Assembly: GCA_013306675.1 (NCBI GenBank)
Contig: JABLUY010000328.1
Span: 1 to 32,870 of the forward strand
Reading direction: 5' to 3'
Length of the DNA: 32,870 nt
From: Thraustochytrium sp. TN22
Taxonomy: Eukaryota; Sar; Bigyra; Thraustochytrida; Thraustochytriidae
The translations under genes were made by a program, and so were the position numbers. The notes under the pieces are model-generated. The model saw nothing but the letters and a program-made list of their open reading frames with translations, made no database searches and had not been told where the DNA came from. Numbering within the stretch: position 1 is the first letter of the stretch; each line of letters starts with the position of its first letter. Below are positions 4,523 through 30,949 of this stretch, piece after piece.

Positions 4523-4524
<2 letters not shown>

Positions 4525-4553: not shown

Positions 4554-4557
<4 letters not shown>

Positions 4558-4858: not shown

Positions 4859-4881
4859 GCAACGGCAGGCAGGCAGGCGGG

Positions 4882-6381: not shown

Positions 6382-6443
6382 TTTTGACCCTGTCCAGGTT
6401 TGCGGCTCTTTCTTTCCGCCAGACGACCAACACGTCATGTAGA

Positions 6444-7829: not shown

Positions 7830-8146
7830 GCTGGCGGCACGTGCGTCTCGTCGCCCAGAGACCTGGCGTTCAGATTCGGGTTCTGCGTTTGTACTTCGGT
7901 CAGCACCGTGACGTTCAAATCCGCCTTTCGAGGAGTGCCAACAGCGAGAACACGATTCGCGTTGACCGACAGTTGGCGGTCCAGACGTCGCTTCTGCCGG
8001 ATTCCGCTTTGCGCTGGCGGCGTCGCAGAGGCCTGGGACCTAGCTCGGGTTCTGCGCTCAAGCTCGGCAGTTCGTCACAATCAAATCCTTTTCGAGGAAT
8101 GGCTATCGGTACATCACACAGAACAGCGGGTGGGGCGGGGCGCACC
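7830..8146. other. gap between BBOF1-like gene and hypothetical gene
   Basis: A 317-bp stretch between two minus-strand genes. It would hold the BBOF1-like 3' untranslated region and the promoter or leader of the hypothetical gene. The reading frame of the hypothetical gene stays open across most of it without a start codon. No regulatory element was recognised. Confidence 0.4.
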
Positions 8147-9610
8147 TCAGGCGTCGCGGACCGCGAGGAGGCCAGAGGGATGATCGGGTCCGGCGGCGTC
8201 GGGAGCACGCACAATGGAGAGGCCAGCAAGGCCGGCCTGCGTGGCGTCGCGAAGCACGTCGCTGGCCTGGTTCTCCACGGCGTTAATGCGCGCAAAGAGG
8301 ATGCGCAGCACGCGCTCGCGGTCGGCCCAGCTGAGGTCCTGCAGGTCAATCTTGAGGTCCTTGCCGAAGGCGTTGCCGAAGACCGGCGCGGAAACCGAGC
8401 CGACCGTGAGGGCGCCCGAAGGCGCGGCAAGTTCGGTCGCGGCGGCTGAGGCGCGCAGCGACGGGAGGCGCGTGGACTTGGAGCGCGCCGAGGAAGGCGG
8501 CGCGTTGGCCGCAAGGCGCACCCGCTTCCGGTGCTCGGCGACGCGGCGGACATGGTCCTCTTGCCTCGCGCGTCGCACCTCCTGCTTGACCTGGTCGAGC
8601 GCCTCGAGGAAGAACTGCTCGGTCTCGGTACGCTGGTCGAGGATGACCTGCGCGAGCTTGCGGATGTTGGCGAGCTCCTTGTTTTTGAGCTGCACGAGCT
8701 GCTTGAGGCCGGTCACCTCGAGCTGCAGATTCTCGGTCTCGCGAGCCGCCTCGGTTCTGTGCTTGTTAAAGCGCAGGTCGGCGTCGCGCACCGCCTGCGC
8801 GAGCGTGCGCTCGAGCCCCTTGATCTTCTGCCGCGCATTGTGCAGCTCGTTCTCCTTGTAGTAGCCGCGCGCGGCGTACTCCTGCTCCTTGCCAGCGGCA
8901 AGCTCCGCGTTGCGGCGAAGGCGCTTGCTTTCCTCCTCCAGCTCGCGATTCTGCACCTGAAGCTCGTCGCAAGTCTGCAATTGGAACTTGAGCTCCTCAC
9001 CCATGCGCTTGTTGTCCGCGATGATCTTGCGCGTGTCCGCGTCCAGCCCCTGCTGAGCGTCCTCTCGCGCCTGTTGCTTGATGCCCTCCACCTTCATCTC
9101 GAACTCGCGCTGCTTGCGCGTGTTCTTCTCAATATACTCGCGCTCCATGGCGTTGATGCGGTCCTGGTGCGCGCGCGCCTGGTCGGCAAGCTGCCGCTCA
9201 GCCGCCTCGAGGCGGGCGTTGAGCACATCGCGCTTGTGCTTGTACTCGGACAGGAGGCCAAGCTCGTCCTCGAGGGCGACCACCTTGGCCTCCAGGGTGG
9301 CGCGCGTTTCCTGCAGCTCCTGCTGCGCTTGCTGCACGGCGGCGGCGCTCGCTTCCTTGGTGGCCTGCAGCTCCTTGGCGGCCTCCTCCTCGTGCCGCGT
9401 TAGCTCCAAGGTGAGCCGCGCGATCGTGGTATCCTTCTTCTCGATCTCGTTTTGGAAGTACGCCACGAACTCATGCGTGTCCTTTTCGCTCTTCGCGGCC
9501 CTGTCCTTGAGTTTGACATTGTCCTCGCGCAGCGCCTCCACGCGCAGGCGCAGGCCATCCGCGCGTGCCTCTAGCGACTGCTGGTACAGCGCGTCCTCCG
9601 CGCTGCCGCT

Positions 9611-9648
<38 letters not shown>

Positions 9649-9718
9649 CGGCGCCGCCTGCCGCCGCGCCGCTGGCCTCGGCCTTGCCGCCCTTGCCGCC
9701 CTTCTTCTTCTTCGCCAT
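8147..9718 (-). CDS. BBOF1: BBOF1-like basal-body coiled-coil protein (DUF4515 family)
   Basis: A 523-residue protein resembling basal body orientation factor 1 (CCDC176), which in animals localises to basal bodies and axonemes of motile cilia. It starts with a Lys/Gly-rich tail (MAKKKKGGKGGK) like the animal protein, then an Ala/Gly linker, then a long coiled coil from about residue 45 to 410. Two family blocks stand out: NKELANIRKLAQVILDQRTE continuing to FFLEALDQVKQEV (about 343-380), and DLSWADRERVLRILFARINA near residue 460, which corresponds to the DLTW-KVLRLLFAKMN block of the vertebrate protein as I recall it. The ATG at 9718 lies in strong context (CCAGCCATGG). The frame is open upstream to 10195, but that part is unlike the family. 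Most of this gene (8443-9718) and its leader is duplicated at 17224-18650 inside the chimeric gene. This copy alone keeps the C-terminal DLSW block, so I regard it as the parent. Confidence 0.9.
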
Positions 9719-9918
9719 GGCTGGGGTCCGCCGCGCGTCCGCTGCAGCGCCGCCCCGCCGCGCCGCCGCCGCGCGCGCGCGCGAAGGCTTGCCGCGCCGC
9801 TCCGCGCGTGGCCGCCTGCCTGCGCTCTCTGATCTCTCTCCTCCCTCTCCTATCACTGCGTCCGCGCTGCATTTTCTCTTCAGGCTCGGCGGCGCGGCTG
9901 CGAACGGCTCTCCGCATG
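8443..9918 (-). repeat. parent B segment of duplication (second copy at 17224-18650)
   Basis: Near-identical over long stretches to 17224-18650 in the same orientation. It begins at the CGGCTG shared with the breakpoint in the chimera (8443-8448) and runs through the BBOF1-like start codon into about 200 bp of its 5' flank, where similarity ends near CGAACGGCT. Differences include small length changes in the Lys/Gly and Ala/Gly runs and scattered substitutions. The identity was judged by eye, not calculated. Confidence 0.9.
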
Positions 9919-10327
9919 GACAGCTCTGGAGCAAGCAAGGAGAGGCCGGCCGGCCAGCTGACGCTCCAAGCTTCGCTACAAACTCAGCTAGGCAGCGAGA
10001 GCGGGCCAGCTCCTGGCTGATGGATGAGCCGGGGGACACCCGAAGCTCGCTCACCTGAAGAATGTGCGGGGGAGGATATGATAGAAGCTTGGCCGGACAG
10101 CGAACGTAGGAGTCTTTGCTTTGGATTGCCTTTTCGTCGACGCTCTGGGCCGGCAGCGCTTCTGGCACTGCGCTTGCTTGGCTGCATGAAATCAAAGTCT
10201 TCTATTACTGTGGTAGTCGAGATTGCTACAAAGGTAAGGTACCGCCCGGCTGTAGCTTGGCTCGGTTGCCGGTCCACCGAGCGAGCGATCGAGCCCAGAT
10301 TGGCTCGTGTCTTGTGATACTCACTCT
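9719..10327. other. intergenic region: BBOF1-like promoter/leader and EsV-1-7 gene 3' end
   Basis: A 609-bp gap between two minus-strand genes. The right part is the downstream flank of the EsV-1-7 gene. The left 200 bp (to about 9918) is the duplicated leader shared with the chimeric gene, with a CGCGCG run and a pyrimidine-rich CTCTCTCCTCC stretch. No gene is supported. Confidence 0.5.
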
Positions 10328-10659
10328 CTATCCCCGCAGGTGATGCTGGCGCTGCTCCATGATGACCAGCGCCTGGTGGGCGCTCTCCTCGGCTTGCTGC
10401 GCGCTCTGCAGCTGCTGCAGAAGTGACTGCGGGAGCTTGTTCGCCTGCTCAATGAGGTTGTGGCGAAGCTCCGGATCAGCGGCGCGCTGCGCCTCGTTGA
10501 GCAGGAGGCTCTGGTAAATGGAAAAGTGCTGCTGCACAGCGAGGCGTTGCAGCTGTGCGTCGTGGATCTGCTTAAGGAGGTGCTCGCGTATTGTCTGCTC
10601 GTCGAGGCCGGCGGCGAGGAGCGCAGCAGGATTGGCCGCAAGCATCTGTGGCTGACCGG

Positions 10660-10711
<52 letters not shown>

Positions 10712-12525
10712 TTGCAGTTGCTGTTGCTGCAGTTGTTGCTGTTGTTGTTGCTGTTGTTGCTGTTGCTGTTGTTGCTGTTGCATCTGCAACTGCATTTGCT
10801 GCTGCATTTGAATCTGCGCAAGCTGCTGCTGATGCTGCTGCTGCTGCTGCTGCATACGCTGGGTATCTGCTGCCGCAACGCTGACGGGAGATTGCGACTG
10901 CTTCTGGGCCTGGCGGCGGCCCGCGCCCTTTTGCGAGCGCTTCGCGCCGGCCGCCTGTGCCTTGGAGGCCGAGGCAGGTCCGGAGGTGCCGTCTGACGCG
11001 GTGGCGGAGCGCTTGGCGGGGCGTTCCGAGGGCGCGCTGTTGGGGCGGTCGCGCTTGCCAGTGCCACCCGAGGCGGCAGCGCCGTCGGCGCGGTTGGAAC
11101 TGGACTTGGGCCTGGGCGGAGTGGCGCCGGACCCACCGGCGCTGGTGTCCACGTCGATCGCCTTGCGCTTTTCGCGCTTTTCGCGCTTCGAGCCCTTGCC
11201 CATATTGGCGCGCGAGCTGGCCCAGGTGGTCTTGACGCCGGCCACGACCTCAGCCATGCACTCTTCACAGTGGGTGGCGCGGTCGTTGCGGCCCACGACG
11301 GCCTTGGATGACTTGCAGCGCATGCACATGCGATAGCCGAGCTCCATGTCGGGCTCGCGGTGCTTGGCGCAATAGTCGCGACGACCCTTATAGCCGTACG
11401 AGGCCGTCTTGGAACAGCTCACGTGCTTGCACAGCCGCTTGGCGACCGTCACCATGCCAGGCTTGCGGCAGGTGGCGCAATGGGTCTTGTTTTTGTTGTT
11501 GGGCCAACCGTACGTGGGCGCCTCCTTCTGGCACACCTTGCACAGCGAGGGCGAAATGGTGCCCATGGTCACCGGCCGGCACGAGTTGCAGTGCGTCTTG
11601 ATGGTGCCGTTGCCGTACGCGGCAACCTTGCAGCCTTCGCCATCGCCGTTGAATAGCAAGTGCACGCAGCCCACGCACGCCCGCTTCCAGTCAGAGAGGT
11701 TCTTGGATTGCAGCGTCTCAAAGCACTCGTGCCCCGGATTCCACTGCACGTAGTCCAGGTGCACGTCGGCGCCCACCGGCCACCACGGGCACGGCACCTT
11801 GGGACTGGGCGCCACCAGGGGCTGCAGCACGTTTGAATCCTTGTACAAGTCGTACCGACAGATCACGTCGAAGCCGCGCAGCTTCATGAAGACTCCCAGG
11901 TCGTTCAGCGCAATGCGCGAAGGCGGCACGTGTCTGCGCCTCGCAATCACCTCCCCGTTCGGGTGCCGCGTCTCCTCCACATAGTAGGGGTCATCCTGGT
12001 TGCCCTCCTCGTCGTTTTGCGCTGCAGCGCTGCCGGCCGGCGTTGCCTCCTCGTCGTCGCCGTCCATGTCGCCGTCCATGTCGCCGTCCTCCATGTCTTC
12101 ATCGTCATCGTCGTCCTCTTCATCCTCGTCCTCGTCCTCGTCCTCATCTATCTCCACCTGCTTTGGCTTTTGCTTCTGGGCCGACGTCTTCTTCTGCTGC
12201 TGCTGTTGCTGCTGCTGCTTCTGCTGCTGCTTGGCCCCGCGCGCGCCGCCGCCCGCCGACAGCCGCGCGAAGGCCGGCACGGCGGCACCCTTGGCCGGCG
12301 TCACCGGCGCCGCCGCCGGCGCTGCTGCCGCCGCCGGCGCCGGTGCGGCCGCCGCCGTCGCCGCCGCGCCGGCGCCACCGCCGCCACCGCCGCCGCGGCG
12401 GCCGTCTGCGCCTGCGCGCCGCTGCCGCCCTCCGCGGCGGCCGCCTGCTCCACCTCGCGCGCGCCTTCCTCCCTCGCGCCTTCCTCGCCCGCGCCGTCGG
12501 GCGGCGGCCCGGCCACCACGCCCAT
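10328..12525 (-). CDS. EsV-1-7-type Cys/His repeat protein with long poly-Gln tail
   Basis: The core of this protein (about 11230-11700) has tandem Cys/His repeats separated by YG-containing spacers. The clearest is CKHVSCSKTASYGYKGRRDY then CAKH and REPDM. This gives C-x4-C-x14-C-x2-H with a trailing Met, the signature of the EsV-1-7 repeat named from an Ectocarpus virus and found in the brown algal IMMEDIATE UPRIGHT family. Flanking repeats have C-x2-C in both halves (CKVCQKEAPTYGW, THCATCRKPGM). Function in this family is mostly unknown; metal binding is likely. An acidic tract lies before the core, and a Lys/Arg patch (KGSKREKREKRKAI) that could be a nuclear signal lies after it. The last 200 residues are mostly Gln. 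The N-terminus is uncertain. The core frame is open to 12712 but reads Arg/Gly there. The ATG at 12525, in excellent context (GCCGCCATGG), is in another frame, and its Ala-rich product flows into the core frame after a probable one-base gap near 12340-12420. Confidence 0.82.
10663..10856 (-). repeat. CAG/CAA poly-glutamine tract
   Basis: Nearly 200 bp of mixed CAG and CAA codons (CTG/TTG on the plus strand) with a few Leu, Met and His codons. It encodes the Gln-rich tail of the EsV-1-7 protein. The mixture of codons argues for selection on protein sequence rather than a recent pure triplet expansion. Confidence 0.9.
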
Positions 12526-13507
12526 GGCGGCGCTCTGCGGGGCGCTCCCCCGCGCCGCGCCGCGCCGCGCGCCGCGCCGCGCGCGCCGCCAGCCAGCAGC
12601 GCCCGGCCGCGGCCCCGCGCGCGCGCCGCCGGCCGCCCGCCCGCCGCCGCGCGCCGGCCGCCTCCGTTTGCGGTTTGTTTGATCGCGCTCGCCGCGGCCT
12701 GCTCCTTCCCACGTAGCTCGCTAGTCGCTGGTCGCTGCTCTAGCCTAGCTAGCTAGCTAGCGGCGACTAGCAGAGCCAACAAGCAAACGCATCAGGCAGG
12801 AGGCAGGCAGCAACTTCCCTTACAGGGGAGCAGCCAGGAGCATCGAATCGAATCGAATCGGATCGACACTCGCTGCTGCATCCTGGTCCTGGGCATGGAA
12901 TGAAGCAAGATCAATGCATGCACGTGCCAGCGCGGGCGATGGATGGATCCTCGCCCGCGCTCGGCCTGCCTCCCGCCCCGGCCTCAGGCTCGCGCGCCCA
13001 GGTTTTTCCACCGAGCCTGTCACTGCGGCGGCGCAGCGCAGCGCAGCGCAGGCGGCTGCTGCACCAACAATCAAATTCTTCGTGAGCTGCAGCGCGAGCT
13101 TGGCCAGGACCGCGGCCTGCGCCTAGAGCGCCTGCCCAGCTTCGAGGCCGAGGCGCCCGGGTTGAAGCGGCCGGCGCCGAGGACAGTGAGGCGGGAATGC
13201 CCTGGCGAGACGGACGCCGGCGGTTGGGTTCTCGCGGCGCGCGAGAGGTGGAAGACTTTGATTGCTTCCGAGGGTTCGCGCCAGCGGCGCCGCCGCAGAT
13301 CTGTAACCGAAAACTGGACGCTTGTGGTTCGAGGTCAACTTCGCCGGGCGGGCCCGGGCGGGGCCGGCGGGCACTGCTAGCTAGATTAGCCCCCTCGCTC
13401 CAGCTCTAGTAGCTAGAGCGTTGCGCGCGCCAGTCGAGTGAAGCCTATCAAAGCGGGAATAAAGAAGGAACGCAAGACCGATTGACGACCGCAAATGACT
13501 GACTGTT
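12526..13507. other. intergenic region between EsV-1-7 gene and chimeric gene
   Basis: Extremely GC-rich up to about 12690, then mixed sequence with short tandem repeats: GCTA (12745-12762), GGCA (about 12792-12810), and GAATC/AATCG (12841-12860). A plus-strand frame across 12943-13380 is open and includes a leucine-spaced stretch (ILRELQRELGQDRGLRLERL), but it lacks a recognisable family. The last 35 bp before the chimeric gene's stop match the downstream flank of the parent gene at 18690-18719. Confidence 0.5.
12841..12860. repeat. AATCG pentamer repeat with adjacent GCTA run
   Basis: About four copies of AATCG. Further left, at 12745-12762, there are four copies of GCTA. Both are short simple repeats in the upstream flank of the EsV-1-7 gene. 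Confidence 0.7.
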
Positions 13508-16331
13508 TCAGGCGCGGTGCTCCAGGAGCTGGAGGAGGTCTAGGGCGTGGAGGTCGAGCTGGAGCTTGGCAATAACGCGGTTTTCGCGGTCGTAGACGTC
13601 GAGTGCCTCGTCGTGGAGGTCGCGCATGTCCTCGAGGACGTCGACGAGGTCGATGCGGGCTCGACCGAGTGCCTTCGTACGGCCGGAGGTCTTGACACCG
13701 ATGAGCTCGAGGGTGAGGATGGCCTTGCCGGCGCGAAGCGCGGACTTGAGCGCCTTGCGCGCCTGGGAGCCCGAGGGCATGGGCACAACCTTGCGGTGCT
13801 CGTACTTGATGGTCTGGTGCATGTGCGTGGCGTCACAGGTGGCCACGGGCGTACGGGCGATGTCGTCACCTGGGAGCCTGCATTGCAGAAAGACGCGGTT
13901 CAGTTCGGTGGGAAGCTTGCCGAGCTTGATGCTCTTGACGTGCAGACTGAGCGCTTCGCCGGGAGCGGGCGCGGCCTCGGCGAGATCGTCCGCATCGCGC
14001 CTGCCCTTGTGGCGACGCGCCTGAGGGCTGCGGCTGCGGCTGGTGGCGCGCGCGTTCGCATCATCGTGACGACGGTCCGATGCGAAGTCAAGGAACTCGT
14101 CGTAGGAGATAAAGCCGTCGCCATCCTTGTCAAAGATGTCCATGAGCACGCGCACCTCGGAGTCCGTCAGCTCGAAGTTGAGGCGGCTCAGGCCGGCGTG
14201 GAAGCTGCGGCGCGAGACGCGGCCCTCGGCGTCACGCTCGAAGTGGCGGAAGGCCTTGCGCACCGATGGGACCCGGCCCAGCATGCGGCGAAACTTATCC
14301 GCCACCTCCGAGGCCGAGGCCTCTTCTGCCGGCGCCACAGCACGCAAGAAGTCGCGGTACCGCACGCGCATGTCCTTGCCGGCGAAGCGCTCAATGAGCA
14401 GGCGCACGTGCTCGGGCTCGACCTGAAACCCGAGCTGCTCCAGGCCGCGCTTGAAGTCGGCTGCATCGATGAAGCCCGCATAGTGCGGGTCAAAGTGCTC
14501 GAAGGACTGCCGGTACGGTACGCCCTTGTGATACGCCTTGCGCACGAGCGCGCGCAGCTTGGTGGCCACCTCGTCGGCGCGTCGGTCCACGTCGCGCCGC
14601 TGAGATCCAGCCACCATGCTGGCGTCCTCCCCCTGTGCGAACGAGACGAACTCCGCAAAGCTGATGCATCCGTTCGCGTTCGTGTCAAACTTGTCCAGAA
14701 GCGCTGCGGTCTCGGCGTCGCTCACGTCAAAGCCGAGCGCCTCCAGGCCCTCACGGAACGCGCCGTGCGACACGAGCCCGCGGCTGTCTGGCCGAAAGTG
14801 CCGGAAGGTCTTCTCCAGGCCACCATGCCCATGTTGCGCCACGCGCTTATGGATCTGCCGCCGCAGCTGATCCGTCAACTCCTCGACCGCGGCCACGTCC
14901 GGCGGTGCGCACTCGCGCAAGAATCGCCGGTACCGGATGGTCTTACGCGAGGATCCGCCAGCGAAACGCCGAAAGAGCTCCTCCACGCTCCGGCGCCCAA
15001 GCTCGAAGCCGAGCGCGCACAGGCCCTCGTCAAATTGCTCGCGCGTGATTTGGCCCGTGCCATCTGCGTCGAAGTGTTCGAATGATTGCCGGTAGTCCAC
15101 GCCACGTGCGTGCGCCTTGGCGAAGAGCTCCTGCAGCCGCTTCAGGGTCCCTTCCACGGTGTCTTCGCGGCTCCCCGCCGCCGCCGCCACCTCCCTGTGT
15201 GTCGACTGCTGCTGCTCTCCATGCGCACTGCCACTGGCCGCAAAATGCGCGCCGCCCGTGAAAAAGTCTGCAAACTCCTGCGCGTCCACCTGGTCGGCCA
15301 GGCCGGCGAACGAGAAGCAGTTCGCCAAAATGTAGACGTCGCGCTCGTCGCGCTCGTCAATCCAGTCAAGCGCGCCCATGAGCTGTCCCACGAAGTCAGA
15401 CCGCGTGCTAACGCCGCCCACGCCGGGCGCCAGGACGTCACCCAGGCTCAAGCGCTGCGCGTGTAGCTGCGCGCGGACTTGGTCCGAGATCGTCACGGCC
15501 TGGCGTGCGAGCTTGAGGCAGCTCTCGAGCCAAGCCGTCACGTCCGCGAGGCGCGCGCTGCCAGCGCCGTCCGGGTCGAAGCGTACGACGACACGCGCTA
15601 ATTCGTCTCGCGAGAGGCTGAGGCCGAGCCGCTTGCACGCGGCGCGCAGCGCGTGGCGGTCCAAGGTGCCCGTGCCGTCCTCGTCTTGGCGCGCCAGCTC
15701 CTTTGCCGGCTCGCGCGACCACTCCTGCGCCAGTACGCTCGACATGATCAGCTTGCGCACGCGGCGCTCCAGCTGCGGCCCAAACTCCGGGTCCTGCACG
15801 AAGCTGGCGAATTCGCCGTAGCTGACCTTCCCGGAGCCCGACTGGTTCAGGTGCACGAAGAGGGCCTCCACCTCGCGCTGCGGCGCGTCCAGCGCCAGGT
15901 CTGCCAGCGCCTGCTTCCACGCCGCCATGTCAAAGTGGCCCTTGCGCCGCCGGTCAAAGTGCGAAAAGGGCACGCGCAGGCTGCCCTGCAGCGCCACCTG
16001 CTCCAAGACCATGGCGCGCACCTGCTCGCCCAGGGCGGCCGCGCGCAGCGCGAGCTCCGAGTCTGCCTCCGCCACGTGTAGCACGCGCGAGAACTGGACA
16101 GCGCCCGTGCTATCCACGTCGAGTGCCGCCGCCAGGCTCTGCAGGCCATCGAGCGCCACCTCCACGTCAACCTTGTGCATGGCGGCCATAAAGCTGTCGG
16201 CGCGCATCGTAAGCACCTGCGCCTGCGCGCCGTGGTGCGCGAAGAGCGCACGGAAGTTCACGCCGCGCCGCCGCCCCGCGTACACCAGTCGCTTGATTAG
16301 CAGCACCTGCTGGTCAGAGAGCGCGAGCGTC

Positions 16332-16387
<56 letters not shown>

Positions 16388-17229
16388 TGGGCTTGGGCTT
16401 GGGCTTGGGCCCGAGTCCATGCTACCTGCGGGCCGCAGCGCCCATGCAAACTCTAGGTACTGCACGAATCCGTCGCCGTCCCGGTCAAAGTGGTCGAAGA
16501 GCGCGACCATGTCCTCGTGCGAGAGGTCACCGAGGCCGAACTGGCGGAGCGCCGCAATAAAGTCCTTACGGAAGTGCTCGGCCGTGCGCCTCGGGTCAAA
16601 GTGCTCCAATACCGTGGTGGTGTTGCTGCTTTGCACGAGTACGCGCAGCTTGTCCAGCACGCTGCGCGCATTAGTGCGCTCCACAGTGCACCAGGCCACA
16701 AAGCCGCGGTAATCGACGCCATCGCCCGCATCAGCGGCGAACATGACAGCGAGCGCGTGCACCTCCGCGAGCGTGAGCGGAAGTCCCAGCATGAAGCAGA
16801 CGCGCTCGAACATGGCTGGAGCAATGCGCCCCGTGCGATCCCAATCGTAGTGCTCGAAGGGTCCGTGCAGCGTGAGGCCGGCGGCGAGCGCGCCGCGCAC
16901 GACGGTCTGCAGCCTCTTGCGCGCCGCCAGGAGCGCCTGCTGGTCCGGCGCAGGCGCCGTGGCGGGCTCCTGGCGCTCCTCCGCGGCGTCCTCCGCGCCG
17001 CCGCCGCCGCCATTGCCCTTCTCGCCACAATGCAGACCGCGCAGAAAGGCCTCGTACGAGACCTTGCCGAAGCGTGCTGGGTCGTACCTGGCAAGCACCG
17101 CCTGTGTCTCCTCGGCGGCGAGGTCGATGCGCAACTCGCGCAGCGTGCGCAAACAGTTGGGGCCCGCCACAGAGCGCGTGGCGGACTTGTCGTGCTGGCG
17201 AAAGGCGTGCGGCAGGTCGACGCCGGCTG
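13475..17229 (-). repeat. copy of parent A 3' half (matches 18690-22962)
   Basis: Near-identical over long stretches to 18690-22962 in the same orientation. It begins in the 3' flank (GCAAATGA-TGACTGTTTCAGGCGCG shared with small changes) and ends at the CGGCTG junction. Main length differences are a roughly 620-bp parental segment (about 21533-22155) replaced here by a hexanucleotide array, and a small in-frame length change near 15350 (GALDWIDERDERDV versus GAQLGLDERDV). Identity was judged by eye. Confidence 0.92.
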
Positions 17230-18505
17230 AGGCACGCAGCGACGGGAGGCGTGCGGACTTGGGGCGCGCCGAGGAAGGCGGCGCGTTGGCTGCAAGGCGC
17301 ACCTTATTCCGGTGCTCAGCGACGCGGCTGACATTGGCTTCTTGCCTCGCGCGTCGCACCTCCTGGTTGACCTGGTCGAGCGCCTCGAGGAAGAACCGCT
17401 CGGTTTCGGTACGCTGGTCGAGAATGGCCTGCGCGAGCTTGCCGATGTTGGCGAGCTCTTCGTTTTTGAGCTGCACGAGCTGCTTGAGGCCGGTCACCTC
17501 GAGCTGCAGATTCTCGGTCTCGCGAGCCGCCTCGGTTCTGTGCTTGTTAAAGCGCAGGTCGGCGTCGCGCACCGCCTGCGCGAGCGTGCGCTCGAGCCCC
17601 TTGATCTTCTGTCGCGCATTGTGCAGCTCGTTCTCCTTGTAGTAGCCGCGCGCGGCGTACTCCTGCTCCTTGCCAGCGGCAAGCTCCGCGTTGCGGCAAC
17701 GGCGCTTGCTTTCCTCCACCAGCTCGCGATTCTGCACCTGAAGCTCGTCGCAGGTCTGCAATTGGAACTTGGACTCTTCACCCATTCCCTTGTCGTCCGC
17801 GACGATCTTGCGCGTGTCCGCGTCCAGCCCCTGCTGAGCGTCCTCTCGCGCCTGCTGCTTGATGCCCTCCACCTTTATCTCGAACTCGCGCTGCTTGCGC
17901 GTGTTCTTCTCAATATACTCGCGCTCCATGGCGTTGATGCGGTCCTGGTGCGCGCGCGCCTGGTCGGCAAGCTGCCGCTCGGCCGCCTCGAGGCGGGCGT
18001 TGAGCACATCGCGCTTGTGCTTGTACTCGGACAGGAGGCCAAGCTCGTCCTCGAGGGCGACCACCTTGGCCTCAAGGGCGGCGCGCATTTCCTGCAGCTC
18101 CTGTTGCGCTTGCTGCACGGCGGCGGCGCTCGCTTCCTTGGTGGCCTGCAGCTCCTTGGCGGCCTCCTCCTCGTGCCGCGTCAGCTCCGAGGTGAGCCGC
18201 GCGATCGTGGTATCCTTCTTCTCCATTTCGTTCTGGAAGTACGCCACGAGCTCATGCGTGTCCTTTTCGCTTTTCGCGGCCCTGTCCTTGAGCTTGACAT
18301 TATCCTCGCCCAGCGCATCCACGCGCAGGCGCAGGCCACCCGCGCGTGCCTCTAGCGACTGCTGGTATAGCGCGTCCTCCGCGCTGCCGCTGCCCGCGCC
18401 TGCGCCTGCGCCCGCGGCGGCGGCGCCGCCGCTTGCCGCCGCGCCGCTGGCCTCGGCCTTGCCGCCCTTGCCGCCCTTGCCGCCCTTCTTCTTCTTCTTC
18501 GCCAT
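13508..18505 (-). CDS. chimeric gene: BBOF1-like coiled coil fused to RPGRIP1L-like EF-hand array and C-terminal C2
   Basis: An uninterrupted 1665-residue frame starting MAKKKKKGGKGG at 18505, the same start as the BBOF1-like gene. Residues 1 to about 425 copy that protein's Lys/Gly tail, Ala/Gly linker and coiled coil but stop before its DLSW block. In frame at 17224-17229 it switches to sequence of the large RPGRIP1L-like gene. That part has many EF-hand-like modules (canonical loops DRDGDGFVQYLE, DTNANGCISFAE, DKDGDGFISYDE, others degenerate), then a C-terminal domain from about residue 1520 (LSLHVKSIKLGKLPTEL onward). This domain resembles the C2-like RPGR-interacting domain of RPGRIP1 proteins. 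A Ser-Pro dipeptide run replaces about 620 bp of EF-hand sequence kept by the parent. The coiled coil carries non-conservative changes (KRRCRN for KRLRRN; EES for EEL). Its predicted place is the basal body/transition zone, by inference from both parents. It may or may not be expressed; its private 5' flank is only about 214 bp. Confidence 0.85.
16332..16411 (-). repeat. GGGCTC/GGGCTT hexanucleotide array encoding Ser-Pro dipeptides
   Basis: About 13 tandem hexamers inside the chimeric gene, first GGGCTC then GGGCTT on the plus strand. They encode a Pro-Ser run between two EF-hand modules. The parent gene at 22125-22145 has only a seed (GAGCCCGGGCCCAAGCCCGA), so the array expanded after duplication, together with loss of about 620 bp. 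Confidence 0.92.
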
Positions 18506-18650
18506 GACTGGGGTTCGCCGCGCGTCCGGTGCAGCGCCGCCGCCACGCGCGCGCGCGATGGCTTGCCGCGCCGCTCCGCGCGTGGCCACTTGCGTGGTCC
18601 CTCTCCGTGCAGCATTTTCTCTTCAGGCTCGGCCGCGAACGGCTTTTAGA
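17224..18650 (-). repeat. copy of parent B 5' part (matches 8443-9918)
   Basis: Near-identical to the BBOF1-like gene from its start codon flank to the junction CGGCTG. The junction hexamer is present in both parents (8443-8448 and 22957-22962). To the left the sequence follows parent A, to the right parent B. The leader similarity ends near 18644, leaving only about 40 bp before similarity to parent A's 3' flank begins. Confidence 0.92.
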
Positions 18651-18719
18651 GGCAGGGAAGCGGGCTGCGGGCAGGCGAGGCTACAGAGACTGATCAACGA
18701 CGGCAAATGATTGACTGTT
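18506..18719. other. compact 214-bp spacer between RPGRIP1L-like gene and chimera
   Basis: The right 30 bp match the 3' flank at 13475-13507. The left 145 bp match the BBOF1-like leader at 9719-9918. Only about 40 bp (18645-18685) are unique. This spacer must hold the parent gene's 3' end signals and the chimera's promoter and leader. The equivalent spacer between chimera and BBOF1-like gene is 3.8 kb and holds the EsV-1-7 gene. Confidence 0.7.
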
Positions 18720-21700
18720 TCAGGCGCGGCGCTGCAGAAGCTGGAGGAGGTCCAGCGCGTGGAGGTCGAGCTGGAGCTTGGCAATAACGCGGTTTTCGCG
18801 GTCGTAGACGTCGAGTGCCTCGTCGTGGAGGTCGCGCATGTCCTCGAGGACGTCGACGAGGTCGATGCGGGCTTGACCGAGTGCCTTCGTACGGCCGGAG
18901 GTCTTGACACCGATGAGCTCGAGGGTGAGGACGGCCTTGCCGGCGCGAAGCGCGGACTTGAGCGCCTTGCGCGCCTGGGAGCCCGAGGGCATGGGCACAA
19001 CCTTGCGGTGCTCGTACTTGATGGTCTGGCGCTTGTGCGTGGCGGTGCAGGCGGCCGCGGGCGTGCGGACGATGTCGTCATCCGGGAGCCTGCACTGCAG
19101 AAAGACGCGGTCCAGTTCGGTGTGCAGCTTGCCGAGCTTGATGCTCTTGACGTGCAGACTGAGCGCTTCGCCGGGAGCGGGCGCGGCCTCGGCGAGATCG
19201 TCCGCATCGCGCCTGCCCTTGTGGCGATGCGCCTGCGGGCTGCGGCTGCGGCTGGTGGCGCGCGCGTTCGGGTCGTCGTGGCGACGGTCCGATGCGAAGT
19301 CAAGGAACTCGTCGTAGGAGATAAAGCCGTCGCCATCCTTGTCAAAGATGTCCATGAGCACGCGCACCTCGGAGTCCGTCAGCTCGAAGTTGAGGCGGCT
19401 CAGGCCGGCGTGGAAGCTGCGGCGCGAGACGCGGCCCTCGGCGTCACGCTCGAAGTGGCGGAAGGCCTTGCGCACCGATGTGACGCGGCCCAGCATGCGG
19501 CGGAACTTGTCCGCCACCTCCTCCGCCGAGGCCTCCTCTGCGGGCGCTACGGCACGCAAGAAGTCGCGGTACCGCACGCGCATGTCCTTGCCGGCGAAGC
19601 GCTCAATGAGCAGGCGCACGTGCTCGGGCTCGACCTGAAACCCGAGCTGCTCCAGGCCGCGCTTGAAGTCGGCTGCATCGATGAAGCCCGCATAGTGCGG
19701 GTCAAAGTGCTCGAAGGACTGCCGGTACGGTACGCCCTTGTGATACGCCTTGCGCACGAGCGCGCGCAGCTTGGTGGCCACCTCGTCGGCGCGTCGGTCC
19801 ACGTCGCGCCGCTGAGATCCAGCCACCATGCTGGCGTCCTCCCCCTGTGCGAACGAGACGAACTCCGCAAAGCTGATGCACCCGTTCGCGTTCGTGTCAA
19901 ACTTGTCCAGAAGCGCTGCGGTCTCGGCGTCGCTCACGTCAAAGCCGAGCGCCTCCAGGCCCTCACGGAACGCGCCGTGCGACACGAGCCCGCGGCTGTC
20001 CGGCCGAAAGTGCCGGAAGGCCTTCTCCAGGCCACCATGCCCATGTTGCGCCACGCGCTTATGGATCTGCCGCCGCAGCTGGTCCGTCAACTCCTCGACC
20101 GCGGCCACGTCCGGCGGTGCGCACTCGCGCAAGAATCGCCGGTACCGGATGGTCTTACGCGAGGCCCCGCCGGCGAAACGCCGAAAGAGCTCCTCCACGC
20201 TCCGGCGCCCAAGCTCGAAGCCGAGCGCGCGCAGGCCCTCGTCAAATTGCTCGCGCGTGATTTGGCCCGTGCCATCTGCGTCGAAGTGTTCGAATGATTG
20301 CCGGTAGTCCACGCCACGTGCGTGCGCCTTGGCGAAGAGCTCCTGCAGCCGCTTCAGGGTCCCTTCCACGGTGTCTTCGCGGCTCCCCGCCGCCGCCGCC
20401 ACCTCCCTGTGTGTCGACTGCTGCTGCTCTCCATGCGCACTGGCACTGGCCGCAAGATGCGCGCCGCCCGTGAACAAGTCTGTAAACTCCTGCGCGTCCA
20501 CCTGGTCGGCCAGGCCGGCGAACGAGAAGCAGTCCGCCAAAATGTAGACGTCGCGCTCGTCGAGCCCGAGCTGCGCGCCCATGAGCTGTCCCACGAAGTC
20601 AGACCGCGTGCTAACGCCGCCCACGCCGGGCGCCAGGACGTCACCCAGGCTCAAGCGCCGCGCGCGTAGCTGCGCACGGACTCGGTCCGAGATCGTCACG
20701 GCCTGGCGTGCGAGCTTGAGGCAGCTCTCGAGCCAAGCCGTCACGTCCGCGAGGCGCGCGCTGCCAGCGCCGTCCGGGTCGAAGCGTACGACGACACGCG
20801 CTAATTCGTCTCGCGAGAGGCTGAGGCCGAGCCGCTTGCACGCGGCGCGCAGCGCGTGGCGGTCCAAGGTGCCCGTGCCGTCCTCGTCCTGGCGCGCCAG
20901 CTCCTTTGCCGGCTCGCGCGACCACTCCTGCGCCAGCACGCTCGACATGATTAGCTTGCGCACGCGGCGCTCCAGCTGCGGCCCAAACTCCGGGTCCTGC
21001 ACGAAGCTGGCGAATTCGCCGTAGCTGACCTTCCCGGAGCCCGACTGGTTCAGGTGCACGAAGAGGGCCTCCACCTCGCGCTGCGGCGCGTCCAGCGCCA
21101 GGTCTGCCAGCGCCTGCTTCCACGCCGCCATGTCAAAGTGGCCCTTGCGCCGCCGGTCAAAGTGCGAAAAGGGCACGCGCAGGCTGCCCTGCAGCGCCAC
21201 TTGCTCCAAGACCATGGCGCGCACCTGCTCGCCCAGGGCGGCCGCGCGCAGCGCGAGCTCCGAGTCTGCCTCCGCCACGTGTAGCACGCGCGAGAACTGG
21301 ACAGCGCCCGTGCTATCCACGTCGAGTGCCGCCGCCAGGCTCTGCAGGCCATCGAGCGCCACCTCCACATCAACCTTGTGCATGGCGGCCATAAAGCTGT
21401 CGGCGCGCATCGTAAGCACCTGCGCCTGCGCGCCGTGGTGTGCGAAGAGCGCACGGAAGTTCACGCCGCGCCGCCGCCCCGCGTACACCAGTCGCTTGAT
21501 TAACAGCACCTGCTGGTCGGAGAGCGCGAGCGTCGCGGTGGCCGCCCCGTCTGCGTCGGCCTTGTCGTGGTCGCCGCCGGCCTCTCCCATGCTCGCGCGC
21601 GACGCCACCACGGTCTGCACAAAGGCCTCGAAGGAGATGCGACCTTGATGCTCCGCGTCGAAGCGCTCAATGAGCGCGTGCACCTCGGCGGGCGCCAGGT

Positions 21701-22962
21701 CGAACTGCAGCGCCTCCACGCCGCGCTTGAAGCCCTCGTACGTGAGCATGCCGTCGGCGGCGTGCTCCTTGAAGTGCGCGAACGGGACAGCCAGGTCGCC
21801 GCCGGCCGCGGACGCGCGATTCACGATCAGCTTGCAAAGCTTGTGTGCCACGCCGTCGATGTACGCCTGGTTCCCGTCCTGCTCGCGCAGAAAGCGCTTG
21901 TACTCCAGCTCGCCCTCGGCGTTGGTCCACGCCGACAGGTCCTCGCTCGCGTCCAGGCCTGCCTCCTGCAGCGCGTCCCGAAAGTCCTCCGCCGAGAGTT
22001 TGCCCCGAAACGAGACGTCGCGTGTTTCCAACGCGGACCGCAGCCTGCGCAGCTCGTCGCGCGGCAAGACCTCAGCGCGCGGGCTCAGCCGCCCAGATGT
22101 CTTCGGCGTGCCTGCGCCAGAGCCCGGGCCCAAGCCCGAGTCCGCCTGGTCCATGCTACCCGCGGGCCGCAGCGCCCGTGCAAACTCTAGATACTGCACG
22201 AAGCCGTCGCCGTCGCGGTCGAAGTGGTCGAAGAGCGCGACCATGTCCTCGTGCGAGAGGTCGCCGAGGCCGAGCTGGCGGAGCGCCGCAATAAAGTCTT
22301 TACGGGAGACCTCGGCCGTGCGGCTCGGGTCAAAGTGCTCAAATACCGTGGTGGTGTTGCTGCTTTGCACGAGTACGCGCAGCTTGTCCAGCACGTCGCG
22401 CGCATTAGCGCGCTCCACGGTGCACCAGGCCACAAAGCCGCGGTAGTCGACGCCATCGCCCGCCTCCGCGGCGAACATGACAGCGAGCGCGCGCGCCTCC
22501 GCGAGCGTGAGCGGAAGTCCCAGCATGAAGCAGGCGCGCTCGAACATGGCCGGCGCAATGCGGCCCGTGCGATCCCAGTCGTAGTGCTCGAAGGGCCCGT
22601 GCAGCGTGAGGCCGGCGGCGAGCGCGCTGCGCACGACGGTCTGCAGTCGCTTGCGCGCCGCCAAGAGCGCCTGCTGGTCCGGCGCAGGCGCCGTGGCGGG
22701 CTCCCGGCCCTCCTCCGCGGCGTCCTCCGCGCCGCCGTTGCCGCCATCGCCCTCCTCGCCACCCTGCAGGCTGCGCAAAAGGCCTCGTACGAGACCTTGC
22801 CGGAGCGTGCTGGGTCGTACCTGGCGAGCACAGCCTGTGTCTCCTTGGCGGTGAGGTCGATGCGCAGCTCGCGCAGCGTGCGCAAAAAGGTGGGGGCGGT
22901 CACAGAGCCCGTGGCGGACTTGTCGTGCTGGCGAAAGGCGTGCGGCAGGTCGACGCCGGCTG
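18690..22962 (-). repeat. parent A segment of duplication (second copy at 13475-17229)
   Basis: The EF-hand and C-terminal C2 coding half of the RPGRIP1L-like gene plus about 30 bp of 3' flank, copied into the chimeric gene. The right limit is the CGGCTG hexamer at 22957-22962. Beyond it the two loci share no further sequence. Confidence 0.92.
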
Positions 22963-25900
22963 CCGCAAGCGCGCGCAGGCCAGCGCCGACACGCGAACGA
23001 ACACGGCGCAATGCAACAGCCAGCGGCTGGCCCGTCGCGAAGCGCACGAGCGCTTGGTAGTCGACATCGCCCGAGGCGTCGGCGTCGAAGATGTCGGCGA
23101 TGGCCTTGACGTCAAAGGACGCCAGCGAGGGCGCCTGCGCGCGCAGGACCTTGACGAAGGCCCTGCGCGGCAGCACGCCGACACGCTGCGTATCGGCCTC
23201 CTGGAAGGGCCGCGCCGATCGAAGCTGCAGCAGAGCGTTGGCTACCTGCGGGGTGAGTGCCGACACGATCCGCGGCTGGAAGCGCGCGAACCGCAGGAAC
23301 TCGTTGTAGTCCACCAGGTCTGGCTTGGCGGCCTCCTCGTCCTCGTCCTTGGGCGAGGACGAGGACGAGGATGAGGACGAGGATGAGGAGAAGTGTCCGG
23401 CCAGCGCCGCAGCGTGCCCCGAGAGGAGCCCGAGGTCAGCCTCAAGCAGCGCGCGCACAAAGTGGGCGCTGGGCAAAAAGCCCGCACGGCGGCCATCGTG
23501 TCGCACGAAGATGGCACGCAGGTCGAAGGACGAGGGCTTCAATGCAAGGCCTTGGCGCAGCGCGTCCTCAGCATCGACCAGAGCAACGGTGGCGGAGTGC
23601 GTGTGGCCACTCTTTACGCGCGAGCGAGTGCGGTAGCTGCGGAAGCGCGACTGGAGGCGCGTGGCGCTCTGGTCGGCCTCCTCACCGTAAGCCGCCAGCA
23701 AAGCATCGCGCTCGGCCGCGAGTGGCATCGTGGCGGCCGCCTGCGAGGCGCGTGCGAGGCGCTCCTGGAAGTCCTGCTTGCGGCGCTCATAGGCGACCAG
23801 GTATGCCTGCTGGTCTTCCTTCGGCCTAAGCTCCTGCTCCTGCTCCTGGTGCTTGGGGCGCGCGTGCTTGCGCAAGCCGGCAGGCCTGTGCGGCATACGC
23901 GCTTGCTCCTGCTCCTGCTGGCGGCGTCGCTTGTCGGCGTCCTCCTGGAAGTCAGGCTCGTCGCGGGGATCTCGCGCAGACGCGAGCTCGTGGAAGTCCT
24001 GCAGACGAAATCCGAGGTCAACGAGGGCGCGGCAAAAGTCTCGCACCGACAGGAGGCCTTCAACCTGGCGGCGTTCAAAGGGCTCGGCCAGATCAGCATT
24101 GGCGTCCGCGGCGCGCAGCGTGCGCATCGCCTTGACGACGCGTGGCTGCACATCGTCCGCTGGACGATCCTCGAGATCATGCACGAAGGCATCGTACGAG
24201 ACGCGACCATCGCGACTGACGTCCATGACTGAGAGGTAGGCACGGAGATCGTCCGCCGGCACCCTCAGGCCGATGTCGTCGAGCGCCGTACGTAGGTCCT
24301 CGAGCGTGACAAAGCCATCTCCGTGCTTGTCCATATGCCTGCAGGCGGCGAGCAAAGAGAGGCCGCTGTCGCGCGCCTGGTCAAGCACGTTGCGCAGACG
24401 CGCCTGGACGGCCTGCACGCGGTCGTCAGCAAGGCGCAGGAAGCGCTGCCAGTCCACGGCGCCGTTAATACCAAAGGTCCTCACGAGCGACTGCACGTGG
24501 TCCTCGGAAAGCGTCATGTTGTCCGTGCTGGCAGCCTGCTCCAGCGTGAGGAGTGGCGAGCGCCACGCGATGCGGACTTGGAGCGAGCCGGCGTCGTGGC
24601 CATCCGCGTCGCGCAGAGGGAACTTGCCGGAGACAGCCTTGCCAAGCGCGAGCGACGCGAGCGGCACGTGCGCCCGGCCGAGCAGCGCGGCATCGTCGTC
24701 ATCCTGATCGTCATTGAGCACGTTGAGCTCGAGCTTCTCGCGCTGCAGGAAGCGAAGAAGGCGGTCGTCGACCAGGAGCGGGAAGGGCGCGCGGAAGTCA
24801 AAGGCCGGGTCCGCGGTGGACTGCAAGATGGGCGTGAAGGTGTCCGGAAAGGAAAGCAGCTGGAAGTGCACGAAGGGGCTGGGCAGCGTCTGGCCGGGCG
24901 CCGGCAGGCTGTCACAGGCGAGAATGGTGATGTCTAGCTGGTTTTGCGCCTTGGCGCGCGCCACGGCGGCGTCGTGGTTGTCCTGGTCGAGCGTCTTGAG
25001 GCGCTCGATGCGCTCGCGCTCACCGGGTACCTCGCGCAAATAGGTCTCAAAGAGCGCGTCGATGGGCAGCGCAAGGCGCACGCAGAGCTTAAAGGTGCCG
25101 AGAACAGAGCCGTCGCGCACCGAGATGATCTGCGCGGCGTCGACCTGCCACTTGCCGGAGCCCTGGAGCAGCGGGCGCAGCGAGAGCGTGGTCTGGCCGA
25201 GGAGCTCGAAGTCGCCGTGGCGCGTGCGGTTGAGCTCGAGCGTGAGCGTGTCGCTGGCCAGGTAACGCAGGAAAAAGTGGTCCACTGCAACGCGGTACGT
25301 GGCGGCGAAGTTGAACTTGGGCTCCAGGCCAGAGAGCAGCGGCGAGGTCTGCGTCTCGTAGTCGTAAAAGTCGAGCATGACAAAGGTCGTGACCCCATGT
25401 TCGAGCTTGCTGGCGTCTAGGCGCGCGTCCTGGATCCAGATCTCCACGAGGTTCTCGCCGGGGCCAAAGTCCGAGGCGGACGCTGCGAGCGAGGCGATGC
25501 TGACGGCGTCGTCGTTGTCGGCGTTTGCCGTGGCACCGTGCGGCGAGGCGGCGGCGCCCTCCGCGGCCGCTTCAGCGGCCGGCTTGCGCTTCAGCTTCTT
25601 GAGAAGCTGCTTGACCTGGGCTTCGAGCGCGTGAATCTTCTGCAGACGGCGCGCGCACAGCGTCTCGTAGTCGTCGAGCTTGCGCAGAAGGTCGTTGTTG
25701 GAGCCCTTGAGCTTGCGCTGCAGGTCAGTGATCTCGTCGTTGAGGTCCTTGTTGATGGCAGTCTGCGCCTTGAGCATGCGCTCGGTCATCTCGAGCTCGC
25801 GGCACGTGCTGAGGTGCGCGACCTGGAGGTCCTGCAGCTTCTTGTCAGAGGCCGGGACGGCCTGCAAAAAGTCGACCTGACCCATGTTTTCGCTTCCACG

Positions 25901-27190
25901 CTTGACCATGGTGAGCGCGCGTTCCAGGTCGGCGGCGTCCACGCCGGCCTCGCCGCTGTAGAGGCGCATCTTGTCCTCGAGCACGCTGGAGCCGCGCTCG
26001 AGCTGCTCGAGTTTGAGCTTGAGCGCGTGATTTTCCTTGAAGAGGTCGTCGCGCTGCTTGCATAGCTGTTCGGAACTGGATTTGAGGGCCAAGATCTCTG
26101 CGTGGTGCATCTTGGCGGTCTCTTTGAGGTGGTCCAGCTGCACCTTTTGCTGACGGTCGGCGCGCTCGAGCGCCAGCAGCTTGTCGACCTTGGAGCGGGA
26201 CTCGAAGGCGTCATTGATGAAGGGGCTCTCGCAGAGCGCTGTGATGCGGTCTTCCAGCGTGCGAGCCTCTTCACGGACGGTGGCCAGCTCCAGCGCCAAC
26301 TCCGCCGCGCGCTCGCGGTGCACGCCGAGCTGCTCGTTCTCGTGCTGCAGCGACTGCACCTTGCGGCGCAGGTCCCGAATTGTGCGGTTGCCCTCTTCCA
26401 TCATGTGCACCGTGCGTTCGTGGATCTCCGCGGCGGCGCGCGCCTTGGCTTCCAGGTGCTCGTACCGGTTGCGCAGGATGCGCAGGTGCGCCGCGTCCGC
26501 AGCAGCCTGTTGCTGCTGGGCCTGCGCGCCCGTATGCGCGGCCGGCGCCAGCGGCATCTCGGCAGCCGGCGCCTTGAACGGGGACGCCCCGTCCCCGCGC
26601 TGCGATCCGGCGTGGTTGTCGCGCGCCATGGTGTTCTCCGCGTCGGCGCGGCTGCGGCGCCGCAGCGCGTTGTTCTCCTCGTGCAGCTTGCGGATTCGCG
26701 TTTCCATGGCAAGGAGCTGCTTGCGCAGCGCCGTGACCGAGGAGGCAGCATCAGAAGCCCGCTTGGGCGCCGGCGCCACCTTGCCGGGCGTTGAGGGCCT
26801 GCGACGCGCCTGCGCCTGTGCGCCTGCGCGCGCCTGCTCGCGTAGGTCGCGGTTCTCCTTGCGCAGGCGCTCATTCTCCTTGCGCAGCGACTCGATCAGC
26901 GCCTCCGCCTCGCGGTCCTGCTGGCGGCTACCGCTCTGCGAGCGCGCCAGCGCCGGGTCCTTGGCAGCCATGGTCTTGTCGATGAGCTGCAACTTGGTAT
27001 GCATCTGCCTCATCACCGTCTGCTGCTCGTTGCTCTGCCGCTTCAGCGCCGCGTGCGCCTCGCGCAGCTTCAGGTACTTGTCCTCCCAGCTCGCTGCATC
27101 GCCGCTGCCATCCTCGCGCCCGCCGCCGCCCGGCACCTGCCGCGCTTTGCCGCGCGACGCCATGGACGCAGCGGACGCTGACAGCTGCAT
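18720..27190 (-). CDS. RPGRIP1L: RPGRIP1L-like ciliary protein with EF-hand array (frameshifted at about 22777)
   Basis: A giant gene of about 2820 codons read in two frames: 27190 to about 22777, then 22776 to 18720. The N-terminus has WEDKYLKLREAHAALKRQ, like the start of RPGRIP1 proteins, then coiled coil to about residue 560. The first C2 domain (about 578-725; VEIWIQDARLD, TTFVMLDFYDYETQTSPLLS, LEPKFNF) closely follows the RPGRIP1L first C2. A second C2 (about 750-880; LDITILACDSL, LLGRAHVPLASLALGKAVSG) follows the second C2. EF-hand-like modules fill the next 1700 residues (DKHGDGFVTLED, DRDGDGFVQYLE, DTNANGCISFAE, DKDGDGFISYDE). The end (LSLHVKSIKLGKLHTEL onward) resembles the RPGR-interacting C2. 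RPGRIP1L (NPHP8) builds the ciliary transition zone. The EF-hand insertion between the second and third C2 domains is unusual to my knowledge. A second Met at 27163 (MASRGKARQ) is an alternative start. The 3' half is duplicated in the chimera. Confidence 0.88.
22775..22781 (-). other. single-base frameshift in RPGRIP1L-like gene relative to chimera
   Basis: On the coding strand this gene reads GAGGCCTTTTGCGCAG where the chimera reads GAGGCCTTTCTGCGCG. One C is missing, so the frame changes directly after KVSYEAF. Downstream the EF-hand sequence continues in the other frame at once. Read literally, the first frame runs out of homology and stops at 22187, giving a product that lacks most EF-hands and the last C2. 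Either a true mutation or a consensus error fits. Confidence 0.9.
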
Positions 27191-27889
27191 CGTCGCTCAC
27201 GCGAGCGAGCGCGCGAGCGCGCGAGCGCGTGAGCGCGCGAGCGGGCGGGCGTACAGGGGTTGCCCTCGCGCGCGGGCGGGCTCGCGAGAGCCCTCGCGCG
27301 CGGCGACTAACGCGATTGTGAATGATGGGACTCGACGCCAGCGGGAGGGATGCCATGCGCAAGCTGACTGACCGTTACGGTGGGGGGACGGCGCTGTCCA
27401 GTCTCGCGCCGCTGCACGTGCCTGACCGGGCTGCGAGGTGTTTGACATCAAAGCCTGCTTTGATTCATGACGCGGGCTTGGGAGCTCGTCTTCTGTGTAG
27501 GAGCAATGGGTTTACAACTTAGCGTCGAAAGAAGGACAGAAGATGCTTCGGTAGAAAGAGACTTGTCGAGAGAAATCTTGAGACACGGGAGTCTTCTTCT
27601 TTTTTGGCGTGCTTTGCACCGGACGGCACGAAAGTCTGGCAGACAGTGGTTTAATACGTTTGACAAAGAAAAGAGTATGGCGTCGCGTCCTCGCGCTGCA
27701 GAGCACTTGCTCGAGCCCCCGTGAAACAGGCAATTTCGCAAGAGCAAGCCAGACGAAAGGCTGCGCAAGATTCATGAAGGCGTTGTAAATGGTCGGTCGC
27801 TCTGCGCCAAGGCGCGCCAGGGGCGTTGACACTGATCTTTGGCTGATGAACTCAATGTACAGGTGGTAAGGTCTAACTAACGGGCTAAG
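27191..27889. other. intergenic region between RPGRIP1L-like and CRAL-TRIO genes
   Basis: Both neighbours are on the minus strand. The first 110 bp upstream of the large gene are GCGAGCGAGCGCGCGAGC-type repeats, like leaders elsewhere here. From about 27430 to 27889 the sequence is noticeably richer in A and T and would be the 3' untranslated region of the CRAL-TRIO gene. No gene is supported in either strand. Confidence 0.55.

Positions 27890-30917: not shown

Positions 30918-30949
<32 letters not shown>

What the first reader, a model, noticed from the sequence alone, without database searches (positions are those of the whole stretch)
8147..27190. A new chimeric ciliary gene made by one tandem duplication between a BBOF1-like and an RPGRIP1L-like gene
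Seen: the gene at 13508-18505 equals the 5' part of the gene at 8147-9718 joined in frame to the 3' half of the gene at 18720-27190, all on the minus strand. The order is full A, B5'-A3' chimera, full B. A tandem duplication of one segment running from mid-A to mid-B leaves exactly this order and only one new junction. The spacers on both sides share their ends, as the model predicts. The result is an intact 1665-residue frame that pairs a basal-body coiled coil with a Ca2+-binding array and a transition-zone C2 domain. This is gene birth caught with both parents still adjacent.
Basis: partly seen in the sequence, partly recalled or inferred. Interest (0 to 1): 0.88.

Follow-up and report, generated by a model that had tools for sequence, protein, structure and literature searches.

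The report
Chimeric flagellar gene between its parents
In a protist related to the thraustochytrid Hondaea, a duplication seems to have joined the front of one flagellar-base gene to the back of its neighbour, giving a still-open fused gene that lies between its two parents but whose protein changes faster than theirs, so it may be a young new gene or one that is fading.

Summary
The gene at 13508-18505 (C, 1665 codons, minus strand) is the 5' part of BBOF1-like gene A (8147-9718) joined in frame, at a 6-base microhomology (17224-17229), to the 3' part of RPGRIP1L-like gene B (18720-27190). Silent divergence is about 0.09-0.14 on both sides outside one low tract, as one event predicts. Four corrections. 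(1) One duplication is not the whole story: the A-C spacer (3.8 kb) holds an EsV-1-7 gene, the C-B spacer is 214 bp without it; a Hondaea BBOF1 record has EsV-1-7 motifs in front, so loss of that copy is likely. (2) B is not one open frame as assembled: a one-base frameshift lies near 22776. (3) C lost about 0.6 kb of B's EF-hand array, now a Ser-Pro repeat, and shares a conversion-like tract with B. (4) Polarised replacements fall 29 on C, 5 on the parents, some at near-invariant sites; C lacks BBOF1's C-terminal motif and RPGRIP1L's coiled coils and C2 domains. C is probably real, young and weakly constrained; expression and function are unknown. Sdic of Drosophila is a close parallel.

The parts
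8147..9718 (-). Parent A: BBOF1-like coiled-coil gene, 523 codons, open
   Evidence: ORF; 29 homologues, some named Basal body-orientation factor 1 or DUF4515 protein, one named CFAP157; aligned with 12 relatives
8435..9830 (-). Part of A, with upstream DNA, that is duplicated in the chimera
   Evidence: BLASTN 92.8% to 17215-18604
10328..12712 (-). EsV-1-7 cysteine-rich-motif ORF in the A-C spacer; no copy in the C-B spacer
   Evidence: Pfam PF19114, 2.3e-10; Hondaea BBOF1 record P0005 carries the motif N-terminal to its BBOF1 part
13508..18505 (-). Chimera C, 1665 codons: A-derived to about residue 425, B-derived from there on
17224..17229 (-). A/B junction at 6-base microhomology CAGCCG
   Evidence: alignments of C with A and with B
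16332..16410 (-). 6-base tandem repeat coding Ser-Pro in C, where about 0.6 kb of B (about 21535-22148) is missing
14391..16299 (-). Difference-poor tract between C and B, likely gene conversion
   Evidence: 29 differences in 1900 compared sites, permutation P 0.0002; longest identical run in the B part 329, P 0.0005; dS 0.023-0.040 against 0.09-0.14 elsewhere
18506..18719 (-). 214-bp spacer between B and C: A-upstream homology beside B-downstream homology, 42 bp unaligned between them
18720..27190 (-). Parent B: RPGRIP1L/fantom-like with EF-hand array, in two overlapping frames as assembled
   Evidence: C2-C2_1 8.2e-44, C2 1.8e-8, EF-hands, RPGR1_C 9.4e-7; homologues P0001-P0003
22775..22779 (-). 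One-base frameshift in B relative to C
   Evidence: alignment; frames; relatives P0001-P0003 are recorded as single proteins through this place

Best explanation
C is a real chimeric gene of a thraustochytrid-like stramenopile. A segment from inside A, across the spacer, to inside B was duplicated in tandem, with the ends joined at a 6-base microhomology that happened to keep the frame (the sequence relations are shown, the mechanism is inferred). Afterwards (inferred) the EsV-1-7 gene copy was lost from the C-B spacer, C lost about 0.6 kb of EF-hand array and gained a Ser-Pro repeat, and part of C and B was homogenised by gene conversion. The predicted product is a coiled coil lacking BBOF1's C-terminal motif, followed by part of an EF-hand array and the RPGR1_C domain. 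If made, it would most likely go to the flagellar base of zoospores under A's short upstream region, as a calcium-responsive but dispensable or partly redundant variant (inferred from the parents' families). Its protein is under weaker constraint than the parents', so it is at least as likely to be on the way out as on the way to a function.
For: Three collinear matches and shared spacer ends. Order along the minus strand is B, C, EsV, A; a fused transcript in that order could not give A5'-B3', a tandem duplication does. dS is 0.092 in the A half and 0.094, 0.136 and 0.099 in three B segments outside the low tract. 1665 codons without a stop; under neutrality about 4.5 nonsense changes expected on C, P(0) 0.011. 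Gaps inside the A half are 12 and 6 bases, the one gap in the B part after the Ser-Pro repeat is 9 bases, so C's frame is kept. Polarised replacements: A half 18 on C to 2 on A (P 0.0004), B before the frameshift 3 to 0 (P 0.25), B after it 8 to 3 (P 0.23); pooled 29 to 5, P 4e-5. At 81 columns conserved in at least 11 of 12 relatives, C departs at 8 and A at 1, that one being shared.
Against: No reads, RNA or related genome could be examined, so the junction and the frameshift in B both rest on one assembly. That A and B are neighbours in a relative was not shown: the two Hondaea proteins are only recorded with the same longest contig length, 460565. dN/dS between C and A is 0.36 (0.21-0.65), between C and B 0.29-0.44 in four segments of 205 or more codons (upper bounds 0.56 to 1.94) and 0.68 in a 59-codon one, so some constraint on C is not excluded. 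In the B half alone the excess of replacements on C is not significant, and 53 of 87 replaced sites were not polarised. The most distant relative, P0022, also departs at 7 of the 81 columns.
Confidence: 0.75

Rival explanations
1. Assembly artefact: two diverged haplotypes or copies were joined, A(1)-EsV-B3'(1) to A5'(2)-B(2), and no chimera exists.
For: Only one assembly was available, and the two spacers differ as haplotypes might.
Against: Four stretches were searched in the 37.9-Mb assembly: 8435-9830, 18687-22970, 23000-30000 and 1-7900 (searches scored 40 of 71 and 40 of 500 candidates). No second allelic copy showed outside the locus: only short, mostly repeat-like matches, a 136-base match at 71% and a match of about 1050 bases at 75% to the coronin-like gene. 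Silent divergence of about 0.1 is high for alleles (another thraustochytrid was estimated at 0.98% heterozygosity, passage of PMC12258536). The join keeps frame (1 in 3 by chance), and replacements are one-sided between the copies, which alleles would not be expected to show.
Confidence: 0.1
2. C is a young functional gene kept by selection (a new ciliary protein), its fast change being adaptive.
For: Open frame of 1665 codons against P 0.011 under neutrality; pairwise dN/dS 0.36 in the A half, interval 0.21-0.65; keeps three EF-hand loops that fit a canonical pattern and an RPGR1_C match of 33 bits.
Against: Changes hit near-invariant residues of the BBOF1 part (F86L, N238D, R240G, L245S, R355G, Q370R, K380N) and the glycine of an EF-hand-like loop (G444R), as relaxed constraint would give.
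Confidence: 0.2
3. C is a decaying duplicate, neutral since birth, not yet broken by chance or because conversion from B resets it.
For: 29 to 5 polarised replacements; conversion-like tract.
Against: No stop in 1665 codons where 4.5 would be expected (P 0.011; conversion would lower the expectation).
Confidence: 0.35
4. The EsV-1-7 gene was inserted into the A-C spacer after the duplication, so the single-event model stands unamended.
For: The short spacer consists of A-upstream and B-downstream ends with 42 bp between.
Against: A Hondaea record has EsV-1-7 motifs directly in front of BBOF1 (P0005), so the neighbour is probably older than this duplication, which no Hondaea protein found here shows.
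Confidence: 0.12

Closest known systems
Sdic of Drosophila melanogaster (AnnX/Cdic chimera)
   Same: Chimera born by duplication of two neighbours plus deletions, flanked by both parents, whose product is in the sperm tail, with gene conversion with a parent (passages of PMC3395120, and of PMC7475035).
   Different: Sdic's coding region is said to come from Cdic alone, it is multicopy, expressed, and affects sperm competition; here both parents give coding sequence, there is one copy, and there are no expression data.
BBOF1/CFAP157-like basal-body coiled-coil family (DUF4515)
   Same: A, and C up to the junction, align with members so named.
   Different: C lacks the conserved C-terminal motif (VLR-LFA-IN; in A and 12 of 12 aligned relatives, not in C).
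RPGRIP1L (fantom)
   Same: B has C2-C2_1, C2 and RPGR1_C and is like Hondaea 'Protein fantom'. [quoted passage not shown]
   Different: B has both an EF-hand array and RPGR1_C; C has only part of the array and RPGR1_C.

Membership tests
Chimeric gene by tandem duplication (Sdic-type) | Two halves match two different neighbouring genes that are still present | tested here: met
   (B is present but frameshifted as assembled)
Chimeric gene by tandem duplication (Sdic-type) | Same age of both halves | tested here: met
   dS 0.092 in the A half against 0.094, 0.136 and 0.099 in B segments; two B segments are lower, 0.040 and 0.023, read as conversion
Chimeric gene by tandem duplication (Sdic-type) | Complete second copy of the duplicated spacer | tested here: not met
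   214 against 3789 bp; only the ends match. Needs a later loss; Sdic too is described with later deletions
Chimeric gene by tandem duplication (Sdic-type) | Absent from relatives | tested here: inconclusive
   No protein with both halves in two searches, each scoring only 8000 candidates; no related DNA was available
Chimeric gene by tandem duplication (Sdic-type) | Chimeric transcript | not testable with these tools
   no RNA data
BBOF1 (DUF4515) | Pfam DUF4515 at its cut-off | tested here: not met
   A matches only DUF4618 at 22 bits, below its cut-off of 34.9; 3 of 14 members of A1 match DUF4515 at 0.001. The assignment rests on homologues so named
BBOF1 (DUF4515) | C-terminal VLR-LFA-IN motif (defined here from the alignment, not from a published rule) | tested here: not met
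   For C. In A and 12 of 12 relatives present, in C absent
RPGRIP1L | C2-C2_1, C2 and RPGR1_C domains | tested here: not met
   For C: only RPGR1_C at 0.001. For B all three, spread over its two frames

The most novel reading that the evidence does not exclude
C is expressed in zoospores and has become a working protein that ties a calcium-sensing EF-hand array and the RPGR-binding-type domain to a basal-body coiled coil, while B, as assembled, has lost its frame at a place where C keeps it: a chimera partly taking over from a parent soon after its birth.
Probability: 0.12. Interest if true: 0.65.

Novelty: new member of a known kind. Interest (0 to 1): 0.42.

Why it matters
A chimera that still lies between both parents, with halves that can be dated against each, lets the order of events be read. 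This one, in a stramenopile protist, shows junction microhomology, probable loss of a neighbour, a repeat at a deletion and a conversion-like tract in one locus. It also shows why an open frame alone does not prove gene birth. That such cases are uncommon is my general knowledge, not a result of these calls.

Tried and rejected
Rejected: retrocopy or read-through fusion, because the order of transcription is B to A and C is A5'-B3'. Rejected: C as the ancestral gene that split into A and B, because A's relatives go on past the junction into the C-terminal motif (12 of 12), B's relatives P0001-P0003 go on upstream of it, and most polarised replacements are on C.

Led nowhere: solved-structure search with A (one weak match at 0.018) and with the BBOF1 alignment (no match at 0.01). 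A zoospore proteome paper (PMC12221091) was searched for four words on the flagellar base, none found. Search listings for RPGRIP1L with EF-hand and BBOF1 (7 listed), BBOF1 (10 of 12 listed), thraustochytrid genomes, protist chimeras and Labyrinthulea with RPGRIP1L (8 of 44 listed) showed no title or abstract start on this gene; of the papers only passages were seen, of PMC7093003, PMC3395120, PMC7475035 and PMC12258536.

Void or replaced: the B-half dN/dS used a wrong frame; one search replaces it. A first polarisation (A half 19 to 2, B half 24 to 7) let gaps and the Ser-Pro region in; one search replaces it. In one search, 34 C residues at the repeat and 16 at a 3-residue insertion were excluded, and 10, 5 and 38 replaced sites stayed unpolarised because the two outgroups differ, have a gap or match neither copy.

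Full report
What is there. The window lies in a 37.9-Mb, 453-contig assembly. The closest protein relatives that bear a name are from Hondaea fermentalgiana, a thraustochytrid. A is 64% identical to the Hondaea record and 71% to an unnamed one, so this is a related but distinct organism; I take it for a thraustochytrid-like stramenopile. The ribosomal RNA search that could have placed it did not complete in six tries.

The chimera. C (13508-18505) follows A for its first 425 codons or so and B for the rest. The junction at 17224-17229 is the six bases CAGCCG, present in A and in B at that point. Leaving out gaps, C and A differ at 57 of 1262 sites, C and B at 55 of 800 and 69 of 2784 sites.

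One age. Silent divergence is 0.092 in the A half (421 codons), and in B segments 0.094 (59 codons), 0.136 (205) and 0.099 (296); two middle segments are lower, 0.040 (324) and 0.023 (307). The low stretch, 14391-16299, has 29 differences in 1900 compared sites, where the poorest such window of shuffled data averages 57.8 (5000 shuffles, P 0.0002); the longest identical run in the B part is 329 (2000 shuffles, P 0.0005), in the A half 150 (P 0.036). A conversion tract between C and B explains it best; stronger local constraint is not excluded, and the A half is mildly clumped too.

More than one event. A clean duplication from mid-A to mid-B would copy the whole spacer. The A-C spacer is 3789 bp with an EsV-1-7 ORF. 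The C-B spacer is 214 bp: A-upstream DNA, 42 bp unaligned, then B-downstream DNA; the stretch round the unaligned part scores no better against the long spacer than shuffled sequence does. In Hondaea one 888-residue record holds EsV-1-7 motifs followed by BBOF1 (P0005), so the EsV neighbour is probably older, and its copy was lost from the short spacer (inference; the record may be a fused gene model, which would still mean neighbours). That Hondaea's fantom and BBOF1 records share a longest contig length of 460565 suggests linkage but does not show adjacency. C also lacks the stretch matching B 21535-22148 and has a Ser-Pro repeat there. Relatives P0001 and P0002 have the stretch, so C lost it; the more distant P0003 lacks it too.

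State of B. B's two frames overlap because it is one base short relative to C near 22776. Relatives are recorded as single proteins through this place. Replacements after the frameshift fall 8 on C and 3 on B (P 0.23), which hints that B's downstream part was constrained until recently; the frameshift is then recent or a sequencing error.

State of C. Polarised with two relatives per half, replacements fall on C 18 to 2 in the A half (421 compared residues, 10 unpolarised, P 0.0004), 3 to 0 in B before the frameshift (58 compared, 5 unpolarised, P 0.25) and 8 to 3 after it (1126 compared, 38 unpolarised, P 0.23). The pooled 29 to 5 (P 4e-5) is carried by the A half. Of 81 columns conserved in at least 11 of 12 BBOF1 relatives, C departs at 8 and A at 1, a site they share; the relatives, which define the columns, depart at 0 to 7. 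If silent change is split evenly between the copies (an assumption; my arithmetic), the A half of C has a dN/dS of roughly two thirds and A one below one tenth. Against pure neutrality stands the open frame: 4.5 nonsense changes expected on C, none seen, P 0.011; this assumes dS/2 per segment on C and Poisson counts.

What it would do. C keeps a coiled coil without BBOF1's C-terminal motif, three EF-hand loops that fit a canonical pattern (the pattern, written from memory, hits 4 places in C, one of which, at 660, looks like helix rather than loop), and an RPGR1_C match (33 bits against a cut-off of 22.9). B's C2 domains were not found in it, and B's N-terminal part lies outside the copied stretch. 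In Paramecium an RPGRIP1L without its EF-hands localised like the full-length protein and the EF-hands were reported as not involved in deciliation, while a section heading names the coiled-coil and C2 regions as required (passages of PMC7093003). By analogy C could not replace B. A role at the zoospore flagellar base is inferred from the parents' families only.

Compared with what is known. Birth by duplication and deletion between neighbours, with conversion with a parent, is the history given for Sdic (passages). This is a new case of that kind. EF-hand-bearing RPGRIP1L is not new either. The combination of the two halves was not found among the 8000 candidates scored in each of two protein searches.

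Odds.

Noticed in passing
window 30143-30499 (-): RNase MRP RNA above Rfam's gathering score (58.7 against 50), opposite an ORF at 30113-31099 without a Pfam match at 0.001.
   Followed up: no
window 18720-27190; P0001-P0003: RPGRIP1L with a long EF-hand array between its C2 domains and RPGR1_C; the array's best solved-structure match is EFCAB6 (1.7e-18). Perhaps an older fusion shared with Hondaea.
   Followed up: partly
P0003 against P0001, P0002: The distant relative P0003 lacks the same EF-hand stretch that C has lost; whether by a separate loss is open.
   Followed up: partly
window 2836-4332 (+): Protein with a thioredoxin match near its N-terminus and three glutaredoxin stretches.
   Followed up: no
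window 10328-12712 (-): EsV-1-7 ORF with Gln repeats; the ATG at 12525 is in another frame, so its start, or an intron, is unresolved.
   Followed up: no
window 2555-2662 (+): TCC-rich repeat (24-base unit) with matches on many contigs of the genome; a simple repeat.
   Followed up: yes
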